Translations under genes and position numbers: made by a program
The notes under the pieces: model-generated
The model's input: the letters and a program-made list of their open reading frames with translations, nothing else
Told to the model about the DNA's origin: nothing
The model's database searches: none
NCBI RefSeq assembly: GCF_009301415.1
Contig: NZ_CP045072.1
Span: 221,501-285,500, forward strand
DNA from: Paracoccus kondratievae
GTDB lineage: Bacteria; Pseudomonadota; Alphaproteobacteria; Rhodobacterales; Rhodobacteraceae
Length of the DNA stretch: 64,000 bases
Direction of reading: 5' to 3'
Shown here: positions 5,305 to 61,498 of the stretch, in pieces
Position numbering within the stretch: the stretch's first letter is position 1
Layout of the letters: each line of letters starts with the position of its first letter

Positions 5305-6486
5305 ATGCTCAAAGACAACGCCTATGCGCGGCTCTCGGATTTCGAGGACAAGAAAGACGAACTGACGGCAATTCGCCATCATCTGCATCAGAACCCCGAG
5401 CTTTCGCATCAAGAGGCTGAAACCGCCCGCTTTGTCGCCGGCAAGCTGGAAAGCTGGGGCTACGAGGTGACACGGGGCGTTGGCGGCCATGGGGTTGTGG
5501 CGCGGATGACGGCGGGTTCAGGTACGCGCTCGATCGCGGTGCGGGCAGATATGGACGCGCTGCCAATCACCGAGGCGACAGGGGCAGGCCATGCATCGCG
5601 CGTGCCCGGCGTCATGCATGCCTGCGGGCATGACGGTCACACCACCGTATTGCTGGGGGCGGCCGAGTATCTGGCGCGCACCCGCCGGTTCAACGGCACC
5701 GTCACGCTGATCTTTCAGCCTGCGGAAGAGGCTGGCGACGATTGCGGCGCAAAGCGCATGATCGCCGACGGGTTGTTTGAAAGATTTCCGTTCGATGCGA
5801 TCTTTGGTCTGCACAATCACCCGGGCGCGCCAGCGGGGACGATACTGACCCGCAGCGGCCCGCTGATGGCAGCAAGCGATGCAGCGGTGATCCGGATCAA
5901 GGGCAAGGGCGGCCATGCCTCGCGACCGCACCTGACGGTCGATCCGATCGTCGTCGCCTGTCAGATCGTTGTCGCCCTGCAAACCGTGGTGTCGCGCAGC
6001 GTCGATCCCACCAAGGCGGCGGTCGTCACCGTCGGCACCATCCATGCGGGTGAGGCGGTCAATGTGATCCCTGAAACCGCCGAATTCGCCATCTCGATCC
6101 GCAGCTTTGAACCCGAGGTCAGGGCGACCCTGAAACGGCGGATCACCGCGATCGTCGAGGCCGTGGCCCAGGGCTTCGACGCGGTTGCGACGATTGACTA
6201 TGACGAAGGGCACCCGGTCGTATGCAACAGCGAGGCCGAGAACGAATTCGCCACAGAGGTCGCGCGGGAACTGATCGGGGCCGAAAATGTCCGCCTGTGC
6301 CCGCTGATCCCGGGCAGTGAGGATTTCGCGCATTTCCTTGAGCACAAGCCGGGCGCGTTCTTGCGTCTTGGCAACGGCGAGGATTCGGCCATCCTGCACA
6401 GCCCGAACTATGACTTCAACGATGCAAGCCTGACGACAGGTGCGGCGCTATGGGCGCGGCTGGTCGAGCGCTGGCTGGACGCCTGA
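5305..6486 (+). CDS. M20-family amidohydrolase (N-acyl amino acid / hippurate hydrolase type)
   Basis: A 393-residue metallopeptidase-fold hydrolase. The metal-binding motif MHACGHDGHT lies near residue 107, the catalytic EEAGDDCG near 145, the metal-ligand segment FGLHNHPG near 170, and the last metal region PGSEDFAHFL near 337. M20D enzymes cleave N-acetyl, N-benzoyl or similar amide bonds of amino acids in the cytoplasm. It follows the ATPase gene by 47 bases and should be in the same operon, so the likely order is import of an amide, then hydrolysis. No signal peptide is present. The exact substrate cannot be read from sequence. Confidence 0.85.
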   Translation: MLKDNAYARLSDFEDKKDELTAIRHHLHQNPELSHQEAETARFVAGKLESWGYEVTRGVGGHGVVARMTAGSGTRSIAVRADMDALPITEATGAGHASRVPGVMHACGHDGHTTVLLGAAEYLARTRRFNGTVTLIFQPAEEAGDDCGAKRMIADGLFERFPFDAIFGLHNHPGAPAGTILTRSGPLMAASDAAVIRIKGKGGHASRPHLTVDPIVVACQIVVALQTVVSRSVDPTKAAVVTVGTIHAGEAVNVIPETAEFAISIRSFEPEVRATLKRRITAIVEAVAQGFDAVATIDYDEGHPVVCNSEAENEFATEVARELIGAENVRLCPLIPGSEDFAHFLEHKPGAFLRLGNGEDSAILHSPNYDFNDASLTTGAALWARLVERWLDA

Positions 6487-7148: not shown

Positions 7149-7853
7149 ATGAAATTCATGAACCTCTGGCAGACGATCTCGCGGGTGAACACCGCGACCG
7201 GCGACGATATCCATCTGCGACAGCGTGGCGAGATTTTCGAGATCCGCTATAACGGCATCGAGCTGATGTCGAATATCAACCATCATTCAGAGGATCAGCT
7301 GGCCCTGCGTCTTTTGCGCCGGATGAACTTTGGTGCCAGAAAGATCCTTATCGCGGGTCTGGGCCTTGGCTATACGCTGCGCGCTGTGCTGGACGTGGCG
7401 CGGCAGGATGCCGAGATCACCGTTTGCGAGCTTATTCCCGAGATTGTCGAGTGGAACAGGGGGCCCCTTGCGCATCTGGCCGGTCATCCGCTGGATGATC
7501 CGCGCGTAAAGGTGGTGGTCAGCGATATCCGCGACCATCTGGAGCGGGTCTCGGATCAATATGACCTTGTCCTGCTTGATACCGACAACGGCCCCGACAT
7601 CGTGATCCGCCCCGAAAATACCGAGATATACGGCGAAAACGGTATGCAGGCGGTTCACGCGGCCACCATGGCGAAAGGCGTTGTCGCCTTTTGGTCGGCC
7701 ACCGTCAGCCCCGGCTTTGAAGAGGCGCTGGATACCTTTGGCTGGGAATGGGAACGGGACGACATCGCCCTGATCCCGGGGCGCGTCGATGCGATGCATT
7801 ACATCTATATCTGCCGGCCTGCTCAGAAAGCCCGCTACGAGCGCGCGGCGTGA
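7149..7853 (+). CDS. Spermidine-synthase-like SAM-fold protein
   Basis: A protein of about 234 residues. The nucleotide-binding glycine loop is ILIAGLGLGYTLRAVLD near residue 67, the acidic residue that ends strand 2 is in TVCELIPEIVEWN, and a strand-4 motif LVLLDTDNGP follows. This is the arrangement of the polyamine aminopropyltransferase/SAM methyltransferase fold. The domain that closes over putrescine in true spermidine synthases is short here, so the enzyme may be a relative of unknown substrate. ATG 7149 and ATG 7158 are both possible starts; neither has a strong ribosome site. It appears to be monocistronic, with a hairpin just after its stop. Confidence 0.65.
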   Translation: MKFMNLWQTISRVNTATGDDIHLRQRGEIFEIRYNGIELMSNINHHSEDQLALRLLRRMNFGARKILIAGLGLGYTLRAVLDVARQDAEITVCELIPEIVEWNRGPLAHLAGHPLDDPRVKVVVSDIRDHLERVSDQYDLVLLDTDNGPDIVIRPENTEIYGENGMQAVHAATMAKGVVAFWSATVSPGFEEALDTFGWEWERDDIALIPGRVDAMHYIYICRPAQKARYERAA

Positions 7854-7980: not shown

Positions 7981-10368
7981 TTAGCTGCGCAGGACGCCGC
8001 CGGTCGCCTTGCTGACCTTTTCGACGATCTTGGCGCTGACGGCCTCGATCTCGGCATCGGTCAGGGTCTTTTCGCGCGGTTGCAGGCGCGCGGTGATGGC
8101 GATCGACTTTTTGCCGCCTTCAAGCCCGGTGAACTGGTCAAAGACCGTCACCCGTTCGATCAGCGCCTTGTCGGCACCCGCAGCGGCGTTCACCAGCGTC
8201 AGCGCCTCGATCTGAGCGTCAACCACAAAGGCAAAGTCGCGCTCGACCGCCGGCAGATCGGACAGGACCAGCGCCGGACGAGAGGGCGTCTTGACCTTGG
8301 GCAGCGGGACGGCCGCGATACGGACCGTAAAGCCGACAGCCGCGCCCTTGATGCCGAAATGGCGCAGCACACGGGGGTGGATCTCGCCAAAGGTCGCCAG
8401 CGTATTCGGCCCAAGCGCGATATTTCCCGCACGACCCGGATGCCACCATTCGTCCAGCTTACGGTTGATCTGGGCCCTGGCCGGGGCACCGATGATCTGA
8501 AGGATCGCCTCGGCATCGGCCTTGGCGTCATAGATATCCACCTTGCGGCGCGAACCATAGGGGTCACGCGGTGCGTTCGAGCCGACCAGCAGACCCGAAA
8601 GATACAGGTCCTGCTCGCCCGGCTCGCCGCCGTTGAATACCGGTCCGCATTCAAACAGCGCCAGATCGGCAAAGCCGCGCGCCTGATTGCGCGCCGCTGC
8701 CGACAGCAGACCCGGCAGCAGATCGGGGCGCATATGCGTCATCTCGCTGCTGATCGGGTTCTCGATCCGCACAGCCTCGGAGCCGCCGCCGAAAAGTGCC
8801 GCCGCCTTTTGGTCGATAAAGCTGTAGGTCACGCATTCGTTGTAACCAAGGCTTGCCGCCATGCGCCGCGCCGCCTGTTCACGGCGTTGCAGCGGCGTCA
8901 GCACCGGCTGGGGCACACCCGCCTGTGTGCGGGGCAGGGGCTGGCCTTGCAGCTTGGTCAGCGAGGCGATACGCGCGACCTCTTCGACCAGATCGGCGCT
9001 GCCCTGAACGTCGGGGCGCCAGCCTGGGACGAATGCCTGATCGCCGTCCAGCCGGAAGCCAAGCGCGGTCAGCGTGGCGCGCTGCTCTGCCTCGGGGATG
9101 TCCATGCCCACGAGGCTGCTGACCCGGGCAGGATCAAGGCGATAGCTGCGGGTGGTGTCGGGCACCGCCCCGGCGGTCACGACCTCAGAGGGTTCGCCGC
9201 CGCACAGATCAAGGATCATCCGCGTCGCCAGCTCCAGCCCCGGCCGGGTAAAGGCCGGGTCGACGCCCCGTTCAAAGCGGTAGCGCGCGTCCGAGTTGAT
9301 CTTTAGCGCCCGGCCAGCGGTCGCAATGGCGATCGGGTCCCAATAGGCGCTTTCCAGAAAAACGTTCACCGTTTCTTCCGAGCAGCCGCTATGTTCGCCG
9401 CCCATGATGCCGGCAATGCTTTCGGGGCCTGCCTCGTCGGCGATGATCATGGTACCGGGGGGAAAGGCATAGGTCTTGCCGTCAAGCGCCAGCAGCTCCT
9501 CTCCCTCGGTCGAGGGGCGGACGGTCAGATTGCCCCGGATCTTGTCGGCGTCAAAGACGTGCAGCGGCCGGTTCAGATCGAAGGTGAAGAAGTTCGTGAC
9601 ATCGACCAGCGCATTGATCGGCCGCAGCCCGATCGAGACCAGCCGTTTCTGCAGCCATTCGGGCGAGGGTCCGTTTTTCACACCCCGGATCAGCCGGCCC
9701 GAGAAGAAGGGCGCTTTCTGCGCCACCTCTGCCGCGATGGTGACATTGATGGGCGATGCGAAGGTGCCGGGGACCGTCGCCTCTTGCACCGGCTTCAGCA
9801 CGCCCAGACCGCGCGCGGCAAGGTCGCGGGCGATGCCGTGGACGCCAAGCGCGTCGGGCCGGTTCGGGGTGATCTTGATCTCGATCACCGGATCGATCGC
9901 CTCGGGGCGGTTCGCGGCCAGCCAGTCGACGAACTTGTCGCCAACCTCGCCCGAGGGCAGCTCGATGATGCCGTCATGTTCATCGGAAAGCTCAAGCTCG
10001 CGTTCCGAGGCCATCATGCCATGGCTTTCGATGCCACGAATTTTGCCCACACCCAGCGTCACGTCCAGACCGGGGACATAGTCGCCGGGCTTGGCCAGGA
10101 CCACTGTGATACCGGCGCGGGCGTTCGGGGCGCCGCAGACGATCTGCTTTTCGCCCTCATCGGTCAGCACGCGGCAAACCCGCAACCGGTCGGCATCGGG
10201 GTGCTGCTCTGCATGCAGCACCTTGGCGATGGTAAAGGTGCCCAGTTTTGAGGCGGGGTCGGTGACGCCCTCGACCTCAAGCCCGAGGTCGGTCAGCGCC
10301 TCGGCGATTTCTGCCAGCGAGGCCTGGGTGTCGAGATGCTCTTTGAGCCAGGAGAGGGTGAACTTCAT
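7981..10368 (-). CDS. pheT: Phenylalanine-tRNA ligase beta subunit
   Basis: A 795-residue protein, normal length for bacterial PheT. Order of domains: N-terminal MKFTLSWLKEHLDT; an EMAP-type tRNA-binding domain around residues 40-150 (VLHAEQHPDADRLRVC, IVCGAPNARAG); the B3/B4 editing region that hydrolyses Tyr-tRNA(Phe); the B5 DNA-binding-like fold; a catalytic-like core; and the C-terminal FDX-ACB anticodon-binding domain ending GGVLRS. It works in the cytoplasm as an alpha2-beta2 enzyme with PheS (11447-12529). pheS and pheT face the same way but are about 1.1 kb apart, with two small membrane-protein genes between, instead of being adjacent. Confidence 0.97.
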   Translation of the reverse strand: MKFTLSWLKEHLDTQASLAEIAEALTDLGLEVEGVTDPASKLGTFTIAKVLHAEQHPDADRLRVCRVLTDEGEKQIVCGAPNARAGITVVLAKPGDYVPGLDVTLGVGKIRGIESHGMMASERELELSDEHDGIIELPSGEVGDKFVDWLAANRPEAIDPVIEIKITPNRPDALGVHGIARDLAARGLGVLKPVQEATVPGTFASPINVTIAAEVAQKAPFFSGRLIRGVKNGPSPEWLQKRLVSIGLRPINALVDVTNFFTFDLNRPLHVFDADKIRGNLTVRPSTEGEELLALDGKTYAFPPGTMIIADEAGPESIAGIMGGEHSGCSEETVNVFLESAYWDPIAIATAGRALKINSDARYRFERGVDPAFTRPGLELATRMILDLCGGEPSEVVTAGAVPDTTRSYRLDPARVSSLVGMDIPEAEQRATLTALGFRLDGDQAFVPGWRPDVQGSADLVEEVARIASLTKLQGQPLPRTQAGVPQPVLTPLQRREQAARRMAASLGYNECVTYSFIDQKAAALFGGGSEAVRIENPISSEMTHMRPDLLPGLLSAAARNQARGFADLALFECGPVFNGGEPGEQDLYLSGLLVGSNAPRDPYGSRRKVDIYDAKADAEAILQIIGAPARAQINRKLDEWWHPGRAGNIALGPNTLATFGEIHPRVLRHFGIKGAAVGFTVRIAAVPLPKVKTPSRPALVLSDLPAVERDFAFVVDAQIEALTLVNAAAGADKALIERVTVFDQFTGLEGGKKSIAITARLQPREKTLTDAEIEAVSAKIVEKVSKATGGVLRS

Positions 10369-47066: not shown

Positions 47067-47156
47067 GCGCCCTTCATCCGTTATGGCGGCAGGGCGCGGG
47101 GGCGCGACATATGCCCCAAGCCCCAGCAGGAACACCCCGTCCGCCGGTCAATCCTT

Positions 47157-47315
47157 TGCGCGGGCAGGTCTCCCGGCTTGCGGATTCGGGCCTGTGGGGC
47201 CCACGGTCGTCCCGCCTTCCCGGCTTTTGGCCAGTGGCTTATGGGCGACCTTTCCGGTCACGGTCGCGGGGGCGGCTGCTTCCAGGCGGTTGCCTGTCGC
47301 ATTCCCTCTTAGCCT
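47157..47315 (-). promoter_or_regulatory. Cobalamin riboswitch upstream of the cob operon
   Basis: Read on the minus strand: a GGGAAT start (47301-47310), the core GCAGCCGCCCCCGCG (about 47265-47279), the GCCACTG motif, GGGAAGGCGGG, and the closing GCCGGGAGACCTGCC (47162-47176). These are the conserved parts of the B12 (cobalamin) riboswitch in the right order. It should repress the DUF1636-cobW-cobN... operon when adenosylcobalamin is abundant. Confidence 0.92.
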
Positions 47316-47387
47316 GTCGTAGGACAGGAACCAGCGCCCCTTGTCTGTGCGCGCCCGGTCCCGACTTGTCAAGCAAAGGAGTGCCCG

Positions 47388-50527: not shown

Positions 50528-50577
50528 TCTTGACCCTTTCCTGTAGTCGTCCAACCCGACGACGTTACGGTTTCATG

Positions 50578-50735
50578 CACCGGCAGGTCTCCTGGCTTGC
50601 GGGTCACAGCTGACGCCCGCCTTCCCGGCCATGACGGGCCAGTGGCGTGATGGGCGTCCGCTCTCCGCTCACAGTCGCGGGGGCGGCTGCGGATTTGGCA
50701 CCGGATGTTCCGGGCCGCACCGCATTCCCTTTTGG
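50578..50735 (-). promoter_or_regulatory. Cobalamin riboswitch upstream of cbtB-cbtA-bluB
   Basis: On the minus strand: GGGAATGCGGTGCGG (about 50716-50730), GCAGCCGCCCCCGCGACTGT (50671-50690), the GCCACTGG motif, GGGAAGGCGGGCG, and the closing AGCCAGGAGACCTGCCGG (50581-50598). All conserved blocks of the B12 riboswitch are present. It should turn off cobalt uptake and DMB synthesis when cobalamin is plentiful. Confidence 0.93.
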
Positions 50736-50827
50736 GCCCCGATCAAGGGGCACCGATACGTGGGCATGTTAGCTGCGAGATCGCGCCGGCGGCAAGCGGA
50801 ATCGGGTGCCGTCTCGTCGCAGGCCGG

Positions 50828-59269: not shown

Positions 59270-60520
59270 ATGACCAGACGCATCATGCGCATTGCGACCG
59301 CCGCCCTGCTGATCGGCACGCTGGCCGGTTGTGGCGTTTCGCTGAACAGGACCCCCGGCGCGGTTGGCGGCAATTTCAGCGGGTTGCCCACTGCGGGAGG
59401 GCAGGGTTCTGAGGCAGGTTTCCGGAACTGGGTGCAAAGCTTCCGTCCGCGCGCGCTGGCTGCCGGGATCTCGCCCACGGTCTTTGACAGCGCCATGGCG
59501 GATGCCCATTATCAGCCCAGCCTTGTCGCTCTTGATCGCAAGCAGAGCGAATTTACCAAGCCGATCTGGGAATATCTCGACGGTGCCATCGGGACGCGCG
59601 GCGCGACCGGTCGCAGCAAGGCCGCGCAATATGCAAGCACACTGTCGGCAATTGAATCCCGCTATGGCGTCCCACGTGAAATCGTGCTGGCGGTCTGGGG
59701 GATGGAATCGAACTTTGGCGTCAATCGTGGCAATACCCGCATCGTGCCGGCACTGGCAACGCTGGCCTATGACGGCCGCCGGGGTGAGTTCTTTGCGGGT
59801 GAGCTGGTCGCCGCGCTGCGCATCATCCAGTCCGGCGATGTCGACAGCGCCCATATGGTCGGCAGCTGGGCGGGGGCCATGGGCCATACGCAGTTCATGC
59901 CGTCATCCTTCCTTGCCCATGCGGTAGACTTTAACGGGGACGGCCGCCGCGACATCTGGTCGAACGATCCGACCGACGCGCTGGCCTCGACCGCAAGCTA
60001 TCTGCGCCAGAACGGCTGGCGTTCGGGTCAAAGCTGGGGCGCTGAGGTGATCCTGCCTCCGGGCTTTGACTTCAACCAGACCGGTAAATCGGTGCAGCAT
60101 TCCGGCAGCCAATGGGCGTCTATGGGTGTGCGCACGGTCAGCGGCGCGCCGGTGCCTTCGGGTTCGATCCTGGCCCCGGCGGGTGCGCGCGGTCCGGCCT
60201 TCCTGATCACCGGGAATTTCCGCGCCATCCTGAAATACAATGCCTCGGACAGCTATGCGCTGGCCGTTGCCTATCTGGGTGAGGCCATCGCCGGCCGTCC
60301 CGGCATTCAGGGCAACTGGCCGCGCGGAGACCGCACCCTGTCAAACACCGAAAAGGCCGAGATCCAGCGCCTGCTGATGGCCAAGGGCTTTGACACCGGC
60401 GGGGTGGACGGCAAACTGGGGAGCCAGTCGACCGAGGCCATCAAGGCCTTCCAACGCTCGCGCGGTGTGACGCCTGACGGCTATGCCGATACCCGCTTGC
60501 TGGCGATGCTGCGAGGCTGA
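59270..60520 (+). CDS. Lytic murein transglycosylase, MltB type, with peptidoglycan-binding domain
   Basis: A 416-residue lipoprotein. Residues 1-21 end in LAGCG, a lipobox that would anchor it to a membrane. The MltB catalytic domain has VLAVWGMESNFGVNRG (catalytic Glu) near 145, LVAALRIIQSGDVD, and WAGAMGHTQFMPSSF. The C-terminal peptidoglycan-binding domain (about 350-416) has GVDGKLGSQSTEAIKAFQRSRGV. It cleaves glycan strands with formation of 1,6-anhydroMurNAc. Confidence 0.93.
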   Translation: MTRRIMRIATAALLIGTLAGCGVSLNRTPGAVGGNFSGLPTAGGQGSEAGFRNWVQSFRPRALAAGISPTVFDSAMADAHYQPSLVALDRKQSEFTKPIWEYLDGAIGTRGATGRSKAAQYASTLSAIESRYGVPREIVLAVWGMESNFGVNRGNTRIVPALATLAYDGRRGEFFAGELVAALRIIQSGDVDSAHMVGSWAGAMGHTQFMPSSFLAHAVDFNGDGRRDIWSNDPTDALASTASYLRQNGWRSGQSWGAEVILPPGFDFNQTGKSVQHSGSQWASMGVRTVSGAPVPSGSILAPAGARGPAFLITGNFRAILKYNASDSYALAVAYLGEAIAGRPGIQGNWPRGDRTLSNTEKAEIQRLLMAKGFDTGGVDGKLGSQSTEAIKAFQRSRGVTPDGYADTRLLAMLRG

Positions 60521-61006
60521 GAGCGCGGAACCAGCGGTCATTACCTGCGGTGTGGCCTTGGTGCGGGGGCGGCAGGACCGCCCCTTGGCGAAGCAGGGGC
60601 TATGCAATCCGCAGGTGGCGTTTCTCCATGCCAGAACATCCGAAAGAATCGGGCGCCTGTGACCCTGGCCTGACATGATGGCGCCGGGATGACGGCAAGG
60701 TCATGTATATACACGGCATATCCGGTGTGTGCGCTATCGCAGCGAACGCGGCTTATCCCCATTGACACAGGGAATACGGCGATCACTTCGCCGACGATCC
60801 CGAACCGGCCCGCTTATCCCGGCGTATGCCGGGAACACTATGAAAACGGGCAGGCCGGTCCCGGGCTGGCGGATTATCCCCGCACATCGGGGACGCGCTT
60901 TCTTGATGCGGGCCTGAAGGTTGTGACCTGTCCATCCCCGCGCAGGCGGGGAAACCCTTCCCGATCCGACCCAAAGCAAGCCCGCCCGGCCCCGGACGGA
61001 CTGCCT
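60521..61006. other. 486-base intergenic region holding a decayed CRISPR-like array
   Basis: Between the transglycosylase and rppH there is no convincing gene. The first 220 bases hold nothing I can name. The rest contains four degenerate repeats (see the CRISPR entry). Frames through the repeats give peptides such as LIPAYAGNT, which I recall as a typical artefact of translating type I-E CRISPR repeats. Confidence 0.6.
60749..60956 (-). CRISPR. Degenerate type I-E-like CRISPR array, four repeats
   Basis: Four repeats start at 60749, 60810, 60870 and 60928, spaced 61, 60 and 58 bases. Each has the hairpin form of type I-E repeats read from the complementary strand: TTATCCC...GGGAA. Copy 2 (60810-60838) is the clearest: CTTATCCCGGCGTATGCC then GGGAACAC. 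Copy 4 (60928-60956) has a perfect core ATCCCCGCGCAGGCGGGGAA. Copy 1 has lost part of the stem and copy 3 has a one-base deletion. Spacers are 32, 31 and 30 bases; 32 is canonical for I-E. No cas genes are in view. It is best read as a relic. Confidence 0.6.
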
Positions 61007-61498
61007 TCAAGCCAGAATTTCGCGGAAATCGGCGAGGACGCGGGCATAGACCTCGCGCTTGAAAGGTACGATGCTCTCGATCAGGTCCGAGGCCCGCATC
61101 CACTGCCACCGGTCGAACTCCGGGTGTTCGGTCTCAATACGGATGGCGTCGTCGGCACCGTGAAAGCGCATGGCAAACCATTTCTGCTTTTGCCCGCCGT
61201 ATTTGCCCTTCCAGACCTTGCCCAAAAGCTCGGGCGGCAGGTCATAGGTCACCCAGTCCGGGGTTTCGGACACCACCTCGACCAGATCGGGGGTGACGCC
61301 GGTTTCCTCGACCAGCTCGCGCAACGCGGCCTCGCGCGGGGTTTCGCCCTTGTCGATGCCGCCCTGAGGCATCTGCCAGGCGGGGCCGGGATTGTCGATG
61401 CGCTGCCCGGCAAAAATCAGCCCGGCGGGGTTGATCAGCACCACCCCCGCACAGGGACGATAGGGCAGGCCCGACGGGCCGAGCAGCTCTGTGCTCAT
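61007..61498 (-). CDS. rppH: RNA pyrophosphohydrolase
   Basis: A 163-residue Nudix enzyme. The Nudix box is [20 protein letters not shown] near residue 46, and [14 protein letters not shown] and WQMPQGGI precede it, as in RppH/IalA proteins. It removes pyrophosphate from the 5' ends of mRNAs and so starts decay by RNase E. ATG 61498 overlaps the ctpA stop by 4 bases. Confidence 0.95.

What the first reader, a model, noticed from the sequence alone, without database searches (positions are those of the whole stretch)
60749..60956. Relic of a type I-E CRISPR array in an otherwise ordinary intergenic region
Four imperfect palindromic repeats with starts 61, 60 and 58 bases apart. Repeat 2 and the core of repeat 4 agree closely with the type I-E repeat consensus, and the first spacer is exactly 32 bases. 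Regular spacing with different sequence between is not expected from REP-type elements. The stem and ends are damaged in copies 1 and 3, so the array is probably dead. The spacers may still record old invaders, or the array may mark a lost cas locus.
Basis: partly seen in the sequence, partly recalled or inferred. Interest (0 to 1): 0.75.

Follow-up and report, generated by a model that had tools for sequence, protein, structure and literature searches.

The report
Decayed type I-E CRISPR array
A short, decayed bacterial immune-memory array (four worn type I-E CRISPR repeats) sits between two ordinary genes of a Paracoccus-like genome that also has a complete type I-E system on another replicon; the relic is real, but of a known kind and probably inactive.

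Summary
On the minus strand, four I-E-like repeats (60749-60777, 60810-60838, 60870-60897, 60928-60956) enclose three unrelated spacers of 32, 31 and 30 nt. A matrix from other arrays scores the tandem at 72 bits, against at most 15 in 60 shuffles. A covariance model built without relic repeats finds R4 and R2 genome-wide (E 4.7e-5, 9.3e-5); R1 and R3 are in register.

It is a leaderless relic between convergent genes (SLT_2 transglycosylase, NUDIX hydrolase). Three syntenic relatives have 90-99 bp there and no repeat. No lost local cas locus: a complete I-E operon with long arrays and a different repeat lies on C2. Relic repeats are closer to the repeat common in the genus. Two sister relics lie at C1:1908511-1908666 and C2:592196-592347, extra relative to six of eight relatives searched.

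'Damaged stems' fails: all four repeats fold with the seven-pair stem. No spacer has a convincing source. Ordinary decay is likeliest; several dispersed relics in one genome are mildly unusual.

The parts
60928..60956 (-). Repeat R4, first in crRNA sense; stem intact
   Evidence: 27.1 bits with matrix from other arrays; 27.6 bits with model R2; folds at -14.7 kcal/mol
60898..60927 (-). Spacer between R4 and R3, 30 nt
   Evidence: by position; 27 weak phage hits, best E 0.6
60870..60897 (-). Repeat R3, 28 nt, one base missing; seven pairs kept around a 5-nt loop
   Evidence: 13.0 bits in register; 13.2 bits; -12.0 kcal/mol
60839..60869 (-). Spacer between R3 and R2, 31 nt
   Evidence: by position; 11 weak phage hits, best E 3
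60810..60838 (-). Repeat R2; stem keeps pairing through a paired C-G to G-C swap
   Evidence: 26.1 bits; 26.7 bits; -15.6 kcal/mol
60778..60809 (-). Spacer between R2 and R1, 32 nt
   Evidence: by position; 19 phage hits at E 1 or less, best E 0.08 in mycobacterial phages, taken as chance
60749..60777 (-). Repeat R1, last in crRNA sense; stem kept by a changed T-A pair and two G-U pairs
   Evidence: 15.2 bits in register; 13.7 bits; -8.4 kcal/mol
60600..61006 (.). Approximate extra stretch relative to three syntenic relatives; edges not resolvable by alignment
   Evidence: 486 bp between stop codons here; 90-99 bp between the matched coding ends in G056, G057, G058; no match to 60600-60990 in the 124 other genus genomes searched, five candidates scored in each
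59270..60520 (+). Flanking gene: lytic transglycosylase (SLT_2, PG_binding_1)
   Evidence: Pfam
61007..61498 (-). Flanking convergent gene: NUDIX hydrolase, RppH-like (the name RppH is recalled)
   Evidence: Pfam

Best explanation
A short, leaderless relic of a type I-E CRISPR array: four diverged repeats and three spacers, read on the minus strand. It descends from an I-E repeat lineage like the one common in other genomes of the genus, not from the repeat of the system now resident on C2, and was acquired in this lineage between two conserved convergent genes. Without leader or identical repeats it should no longer gain spacers; substitutions and small deletions have worn repeats and spacers. 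Shown: repeats, spacing, strand, short junction without repeats in three relatives, two sister relics in the same genome, intact system elsewhere. Inferred: acquisition rather than loss in the relatives, decay after acquisition, and lack of function.
For: Chained score 72.4 bits against shuffle maximum 14.8. Independent model R2 finds R4 and R2 genome-wide at E 4.7e-5 and 9.3e-5, R1 and R3 in register. Spacer lengths 32, 31, 30; no pair of the 7 spacers of the three sites scores above the best of its shuffles (21 pairs, 50 shuffles each). The 9 relic repeats compared (all but the 34-nt one at b) match the genus repeat better than the resident one: window 18, 22, 22, 23, b 21, 25, c 16, 24, 17 of 29 against 16, 17, 20, 20, 16, 22, 15, 21, 15 (the two outer c repeats only by 1 and 2). 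G056, G057, G058 keep both neighbours 90-99 bp apart without a repeat-like site, best 4.5 bits. Sites b and c have the same architecture with spacers of 32 nt and are longer than in six of the eight relatives searched; in the other two the flanking blocks are not both found together; the relatives' gaps hold no strong repeat-like site. Only 50 bp separate R4 from the upstream stop codon, with a terminator-like hairpin and no sigma-70-like promoter.
Against: All four window stems are preserved despite six stem substitutions; with an assumed ancestral stem, random substitution gives this in 0.2 to 1.3% of trials for R1 and R2 together (post hoc), which pure decay predicts poorly. R1 and R3 are not significant alone with the independent model. 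No spacer source was found. Acquisition of leaderless arrays at three sites needs an unexplained route.
Confidence: 0.8

Rival explanations
1. Retained guide or decoy: the diverged repeats are still processed by the resident Cas6e and feed Cascade with fixed guides, like CreTA or other CRISPR-derived regulators with degenerate ectopic repeats.
For: All four window stems are kept, R2 through a paired swap; a complete Cascade operon is in the genome; [quoted passage not shown]).
Against: No sigma-70-like promoter. No spacer has a seed or identity match in the 64-kb window clearly beyond shuffled spacers: one 11-nt seed run for the R2-R1 spacer, at 9858, against 10 as maximum of 20 shuffles. Of the sister repeats folded, b 5578 and c 5258 do not keep the full stem. 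The cas locus is on another replicon.
Confidence: 0.08
2. Ectopic Cas1-Cas2 integration built new arrays at local repeat-like sites.
For: Extra stretches relative to relatives at three sites; off-array integration by overexpressed Cas1-Cas2 is reported (Nivala 2018, seen only as cited in PMC11788318, passages).
Against: Integration copies the local target (recalled), yet the corresponding gap in three relatives holds no repeat-like sequence, and a repeat at b and one at c, on different replicons, agree at 26 of 29 positions, more than the window repeats agree with each other (16-19 of 29).
Confidence: 0.04
3. Dispersed REP-type hairpin family or terminator hairpins between convergent genes.
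For: Lies between convergent genes; a pair of similar hairpins, read on opposite strands by the models, exists at C2:486041-486130.
Against: Few copies in 4.2 Mb; regular 58-61 spacing; the match extends beyond the hairpin over the 3' handle; sites b and c give spacers of 32 nt.
Confidence: 0.05
4. An old array lost by the relatives rather than gained here.
For: Only few close relatives could be compared; the repeats are worn.
Against: Would need losses in three relatives at the window site and in six each at b and c, unless they share one loss.
Confidence: 0.12

Closest known systems
Type I-E CRISPR arrays of the genus (repeat CTGTTCCCCGCA..CGCGGGGATGAACCG, e.g. loci L130, L134, L137)
   Same: Repeat length, stem, 3' handle, 61-bp period
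   Different: Those repeats are near identical and many; here four, mutually 16-19 of 29 identical, no leader
Resident type I-E system on C2 (L017; repeat GGCTCCCCCGCACCTGCGGGGATAGACCC)
   Same: Same subtype and stem
   Different: Different repeat ends, long arrays of uniform repeats, complete cas operon beside it
CreTA and other ectopic degenerate repeats (PMC9458426)
   Same: Few, degenerate repeats outside the main array
   Different: No local target and no link to the cas locus found here
Degenerated ends of CRISPR arrays and isolated arrays (PMC4869251 passages; PMC5294841 abstract)
   Same: Diverged repeats still in register; array far from cas genes
   Different: Here the whole array is degenerate and three such pieces occur in one genome
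Racr and solitary repeat units of phages (PMC10651486, listing and start of abstract only)
   Same: Few I-E-like repeats outside an array
   Different: The genes on both sides of the window relic are not phage genes

Membership tests
Type I-E CRISPR array | 29-nt repeats with the I-E stem and handle | tested here: met
   Scores with matrix and model built from other arrays; degenerate, R3 28 nt
Type I-E CRISPR array | Spacers of about 32 nt, unrelated to each other | tested here: met
   32, 31, 30 nt; no pair scores above the best of its shuffles; 32 nt at sister sites b and c
Type I-E CRISPR array | Near-identical repeats | tested here: not met
   16-19 of 29 identical between window repeats: a relic, not an intact array
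Type I-E CRISPR array | Leader with promoter upstream of first repeat | tested here: not met
   50 bp to the upstream stop codon; no sigma-70-like promoter in 60450-61100; other promoter types not covered
Type I-E CRISPR array | cas genes adjacent or in the genome | tested here: met
   Not adjacent; complete operon on C2
Type I-E CRISPR array | Spacers match mobile elements | tested here: inconclusive
   No credible match; worn spacers and limited databases
REP-type dispersed hairpin | Many solitary copies without fixed period | tested here: not met
   3 places by pattern; few by models
CreTA-like CRISPR regulator | Spacer partly matches an adjacent promoter; linked to cas locus | tested here: not met
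   No local match clearly above shuffles; cas on another replicon
CreTA-like CRISPR regulator | Transcribed and processed by Cas6 | not testable with these tools
   Needs small-RNA data
Cas1-Cas2 neo-array | Repeats are copies of the local target sequence | tested here: not met
   Three relatives' gaps lack a repeat-like site; repeats agree across replicons

The most novel reading that the evidence does not exclude
At least three leaderless I-E mini-arrays were seeded at separate intergenic sites on two replicons of one lineage, and the window copy keeps its hairpins by paired changes because the resident Cas6e and Cascade still use it as a fixed guide or decoy: a route by which immune arrays are scattered and reused outside the CRISPR locus.
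Probability: 0.07. Interest if true: 0.65.

Novelty: new member of a known kind. Interest (0 to 1): 0.3.

Why it matters
It shows that a relic array missed by a generic repeat finder can be recognised with a genus-specific repeat matrix, and that one genome can hold several relics of a repeat lineage other than its resident one, a possible trace of replaced immune systems. If the kept stems reflect use, it would be a case of array reuse outside the CRISPR locus. As it stands it is mainly an annotation result.

Tried and rejected
Lost cas locus at the site: rejected, three relatives have a short junction between the same genes. Copies of the resident array: rejected by repeat sequence. Other weak hits of model R1 in the own genome, twelve stretches (L159-L170) tested for a tandem: L161, L162, L165, L167, L168 and L170 do not exceed their shuffles; L160 (C3:377753) does, as a single site inside a 301-aa open reading frame; L163, L164, L166 and L169 exceed the shuffle maximum as single sites without a partner and were not followed (they were picked as top hits, so this is expected in part). 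L159 (C2:486041-486130) scores 33.9 bits as a two-repeat minus-strand tandem 61 apart, shuffle maximum 13.2, but both models read its two hairpins on opposite strands; strand is ambiguous, so it is left as a possible fourth site and not counted.

Other genomes. In 12 genus genomes searched with R1, 30 of the listed matches were fetched and tested; only the resident-type intact array of G058 gave a tandem; the remaining listed matches were not tested. With R2 in 36 genomes (G000 and 35 chosen mostly for lack of long arrays), four of the 35 others have hits at E 1e-4 or less: G102 (two repeats 60 apart), G077 (one), and G018 and G013, which look coding by eye, untested. So relics of this kind are not confined to this genome. 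Of 80 NUDIX-gene loci from genome contigs (the best 80 of 588), none has a repeat chain over 18 bits; in 10 of them the transglycosylase lies downstream. Model R1 was built from the relics, so its own-genome ranks are circular; R2 and the matrix are not.

Viral contigs: exact pattern of the repeat core, four contigs; L218 has three good repeats beside genes that look phage-like by eye, but nothing connects it to this genome.

Full report
What is there. Region 60749-60956 holds four imperfect palindromes with starts 61, 60 and 58 apart. They read as type I-E repeats on the minus strand, so the array runs from 60956 down to 60749. A matrix built from 15 repeats of other arrays (the resident repeat among them, no relic repeat) gives a chained score of 72.4 bits; 60 shuffles of the 601-bp region reach at most 14.8, and the rest of the window at most 14.2. 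A covariance model from 13 repeats of other genomes (R2) finds R4 and R2 in the whole genome at E 4.7e-5 and 9.3e-5; R1 and R3 score 13.7 and 13.2 bits in the window, no more than the best unrelated place (14.1), and are convincing only because they lie in register.

Structure. All four repeats fold with the I-E stem of seven pairs. R1 keeps it by one changed T-A pair and two G-U pairs, R2 by exchanging C-G for G-C; R3, one base short, has seven pairs around a 5-nt loop. Against an assumed ancestral stem, random substitution keeps all pairs in both R1 (four changes) and R2 (two changes) in 0.17, 0.54 or 1.3% of trials for transition weights of 2, 4 and 8. This is a post hoc test on two repeats. 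At the sister sites, b repeat 5578 and c repeat 5258 do not keep the full stem, so selection on stems is not general; copying of one arm from the other by template switching (recalled mechanism, untested here) would give the same pattern without selection.

Surroundings. The array lies in 486 bp between the stop codons of a lytic transglycosylase and a NUDIX hydrolase gene, convergent. G056, G057 and G058 encode both neighbours (91-94% and 85-90% amino-acid identity) with 90-99 bp between the matched coding ends, and their gaps have no repeat-like site: best 4.5 bits against 27.1 here. The stretch 60600-60990 matched 1 of 125 genus genomes, its own (five candidates scored per genome). None of 80 NUDIX loci from genome contigs, most of the best ones named Paracoccus, has a repeat chain over 18 bits. 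The host is Paracoccus-like by these hits; the genome itself is unnamed.

The genome's CRISPR state. One cas1e was found, in a full I-E operon on C2: cas3, cse1, cse2, cas7, cas5, cas6e, cas1 (cse1, cse2 and cas6e fall under the curated cut-offs, their order supports them) and cas2. Its array has repeats every 61 bp and is interrupted by an IS66-family transposase gene. The resident repeat differs from the relics: each of the 9 relic repeats compared is nearer to the common genus repeat than to the resident one, the two outer c repeats only by 1 and 2 positions. That repeat type forms intact arrays in other genomes of the genus.

Sister relics. The relic-built model R1 ranks C1:1908638 and 1908577 and C2:592257 with the window repeats (circular). 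Independent tests agree: chains of 52 and 42 bits against shuffle maxima of 19 and 15, best R2 hits E 2.0e-10 and 1.2e-6. Site b has two clear repeats 61 apart (19.1 and 34.8 bits) and a third with a 5-nt insertion (4.1 bits ungapped; 18.7 with R1); its chain also takes in a fourth weak place at 5452, which I do not count. Spacers are 32 and 32. Site c has one clear repeat (31.0 bits) with weak partners of 7.4 and 9.3 bits exactly 61 away on both sides, spacers 32 and 32; scores that high on both sides within 57-65 would occur with probability about 1e-6 in background sequence. Its stretch from the middle repeat into the third also aligns to a Paracoccus aestuarii plasmid (77% over 80 bases, E 2e-4). 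Both sites are longer than in six of eight relatives; in the other two, G012 and G069, the flanking blocks are not both found together. The best repeat-like scores in the relatives' loci reach 16.1 bits but lie outside the gaps, save one of 5.2 bits in the gap of G056 at c. Site b lies between a DUF697 gene and a penicillin-binding protein gene; site c lies just upstream of the tmRNA gene, with a resolvase-domain gene beyond.

Spacers. The phage hits are 19 at E 1 or less for the R2-R1 spacer (all listed, best 0.08, mycobacterial phages; 130 records at E 10 or less, six listed), 11 for the R3-R2 spacer (all listed, best E 3; one, 19 bases at E 10, is in a Paracoccus phage) and 27 for the R4-R3 spacer (all listed, best E 0.6): taken as chance. 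The array stretch against plasmids gave six records, E 0.2 or weaker. Site b gave two phage records at E 0.5 and 26 plasmid records (eight listed, E 0.01 or weaker); site c no phage and 14 plasmid records. The plasmid hits of b and c, many in alphaproteobacteria, overlap repeats and were not opened. No local target stands out: one seed run of 11 nt against a shuffle maximum of 10, 51 kb away.

Literature. Six searches of the open-access library listed no paper whose title or abstract start describes dispersed degenerate I-E arrays in Paracoccus; only listings were judged, apart from the outline with abstract and section 13 of PMC9458426, passages of PMC4869251 and PMC11788318 and the abstract of PMC5294841. 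Degenerate repeats at array ends and isolated CRISPR loci are documented there, so the kind is known.

Verdict. A genuine, degenerate I-E relic array, one of three in this genome (a fourth possible), from a repeat lineage other than the resident one, most likely inactive. How three leaderless pieces reached three sites is open.

Noticed in passing
G000 C1:1908511-1908666 (L018:5512-5667): Second relic I-E array, two clear repeats and one with a 5-nt insertion, spacers of 32 and 32 nt, between a DUF697 gene and a penicillin-binding protein gene; extra relative to relatives.
   Followed up: yes
G000 C2:592196-592347 (L019:5197-5347): Third relic array, one clear repeat and two weak ones exactly 61 away, just upstream of the tmRNA gene and near a resolvase-domain gene.
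   Followed up: yes
G000 C2:486041-486130 (L159:542-631): Two I-E-like hairpins 61 apart; 33.9 bits as a tandem on one strand, but the models read them on opposite strands; possible fourth site.
   Followed up: partly
L017:4101-8716 (G000 C2): Resident array is split by an IS66-family transposase gene; the 300 bases from 7043 recur identically at 7409, so a block of spacers is duplicated.
   Followed up: partly
L141 (G059 C37): Long I-E array in another genome whose repeats vary strongly from unit to unit; by eye many keep the stem.
   Followed up: no
L135 (G102 C45) and L152 (G077 C1): A two-repeat mini-array and a solitary I-E repeat with a changed but paired stem, in genomes with only two and one hits of model R1.
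   Followed up: partly
L218:8853-9095 (IMGVR_UViG_2630968879_000002): Viral contig with three I-E repeats beside genes that look phage-like by eye, possibly a phage mini-array or repeat mimic.
   Followed up: no
window 50565-50772 and 47146-47350, minus strand: Two cobalamin riboswitches about 3.2 kb apart.
   Followed up: no
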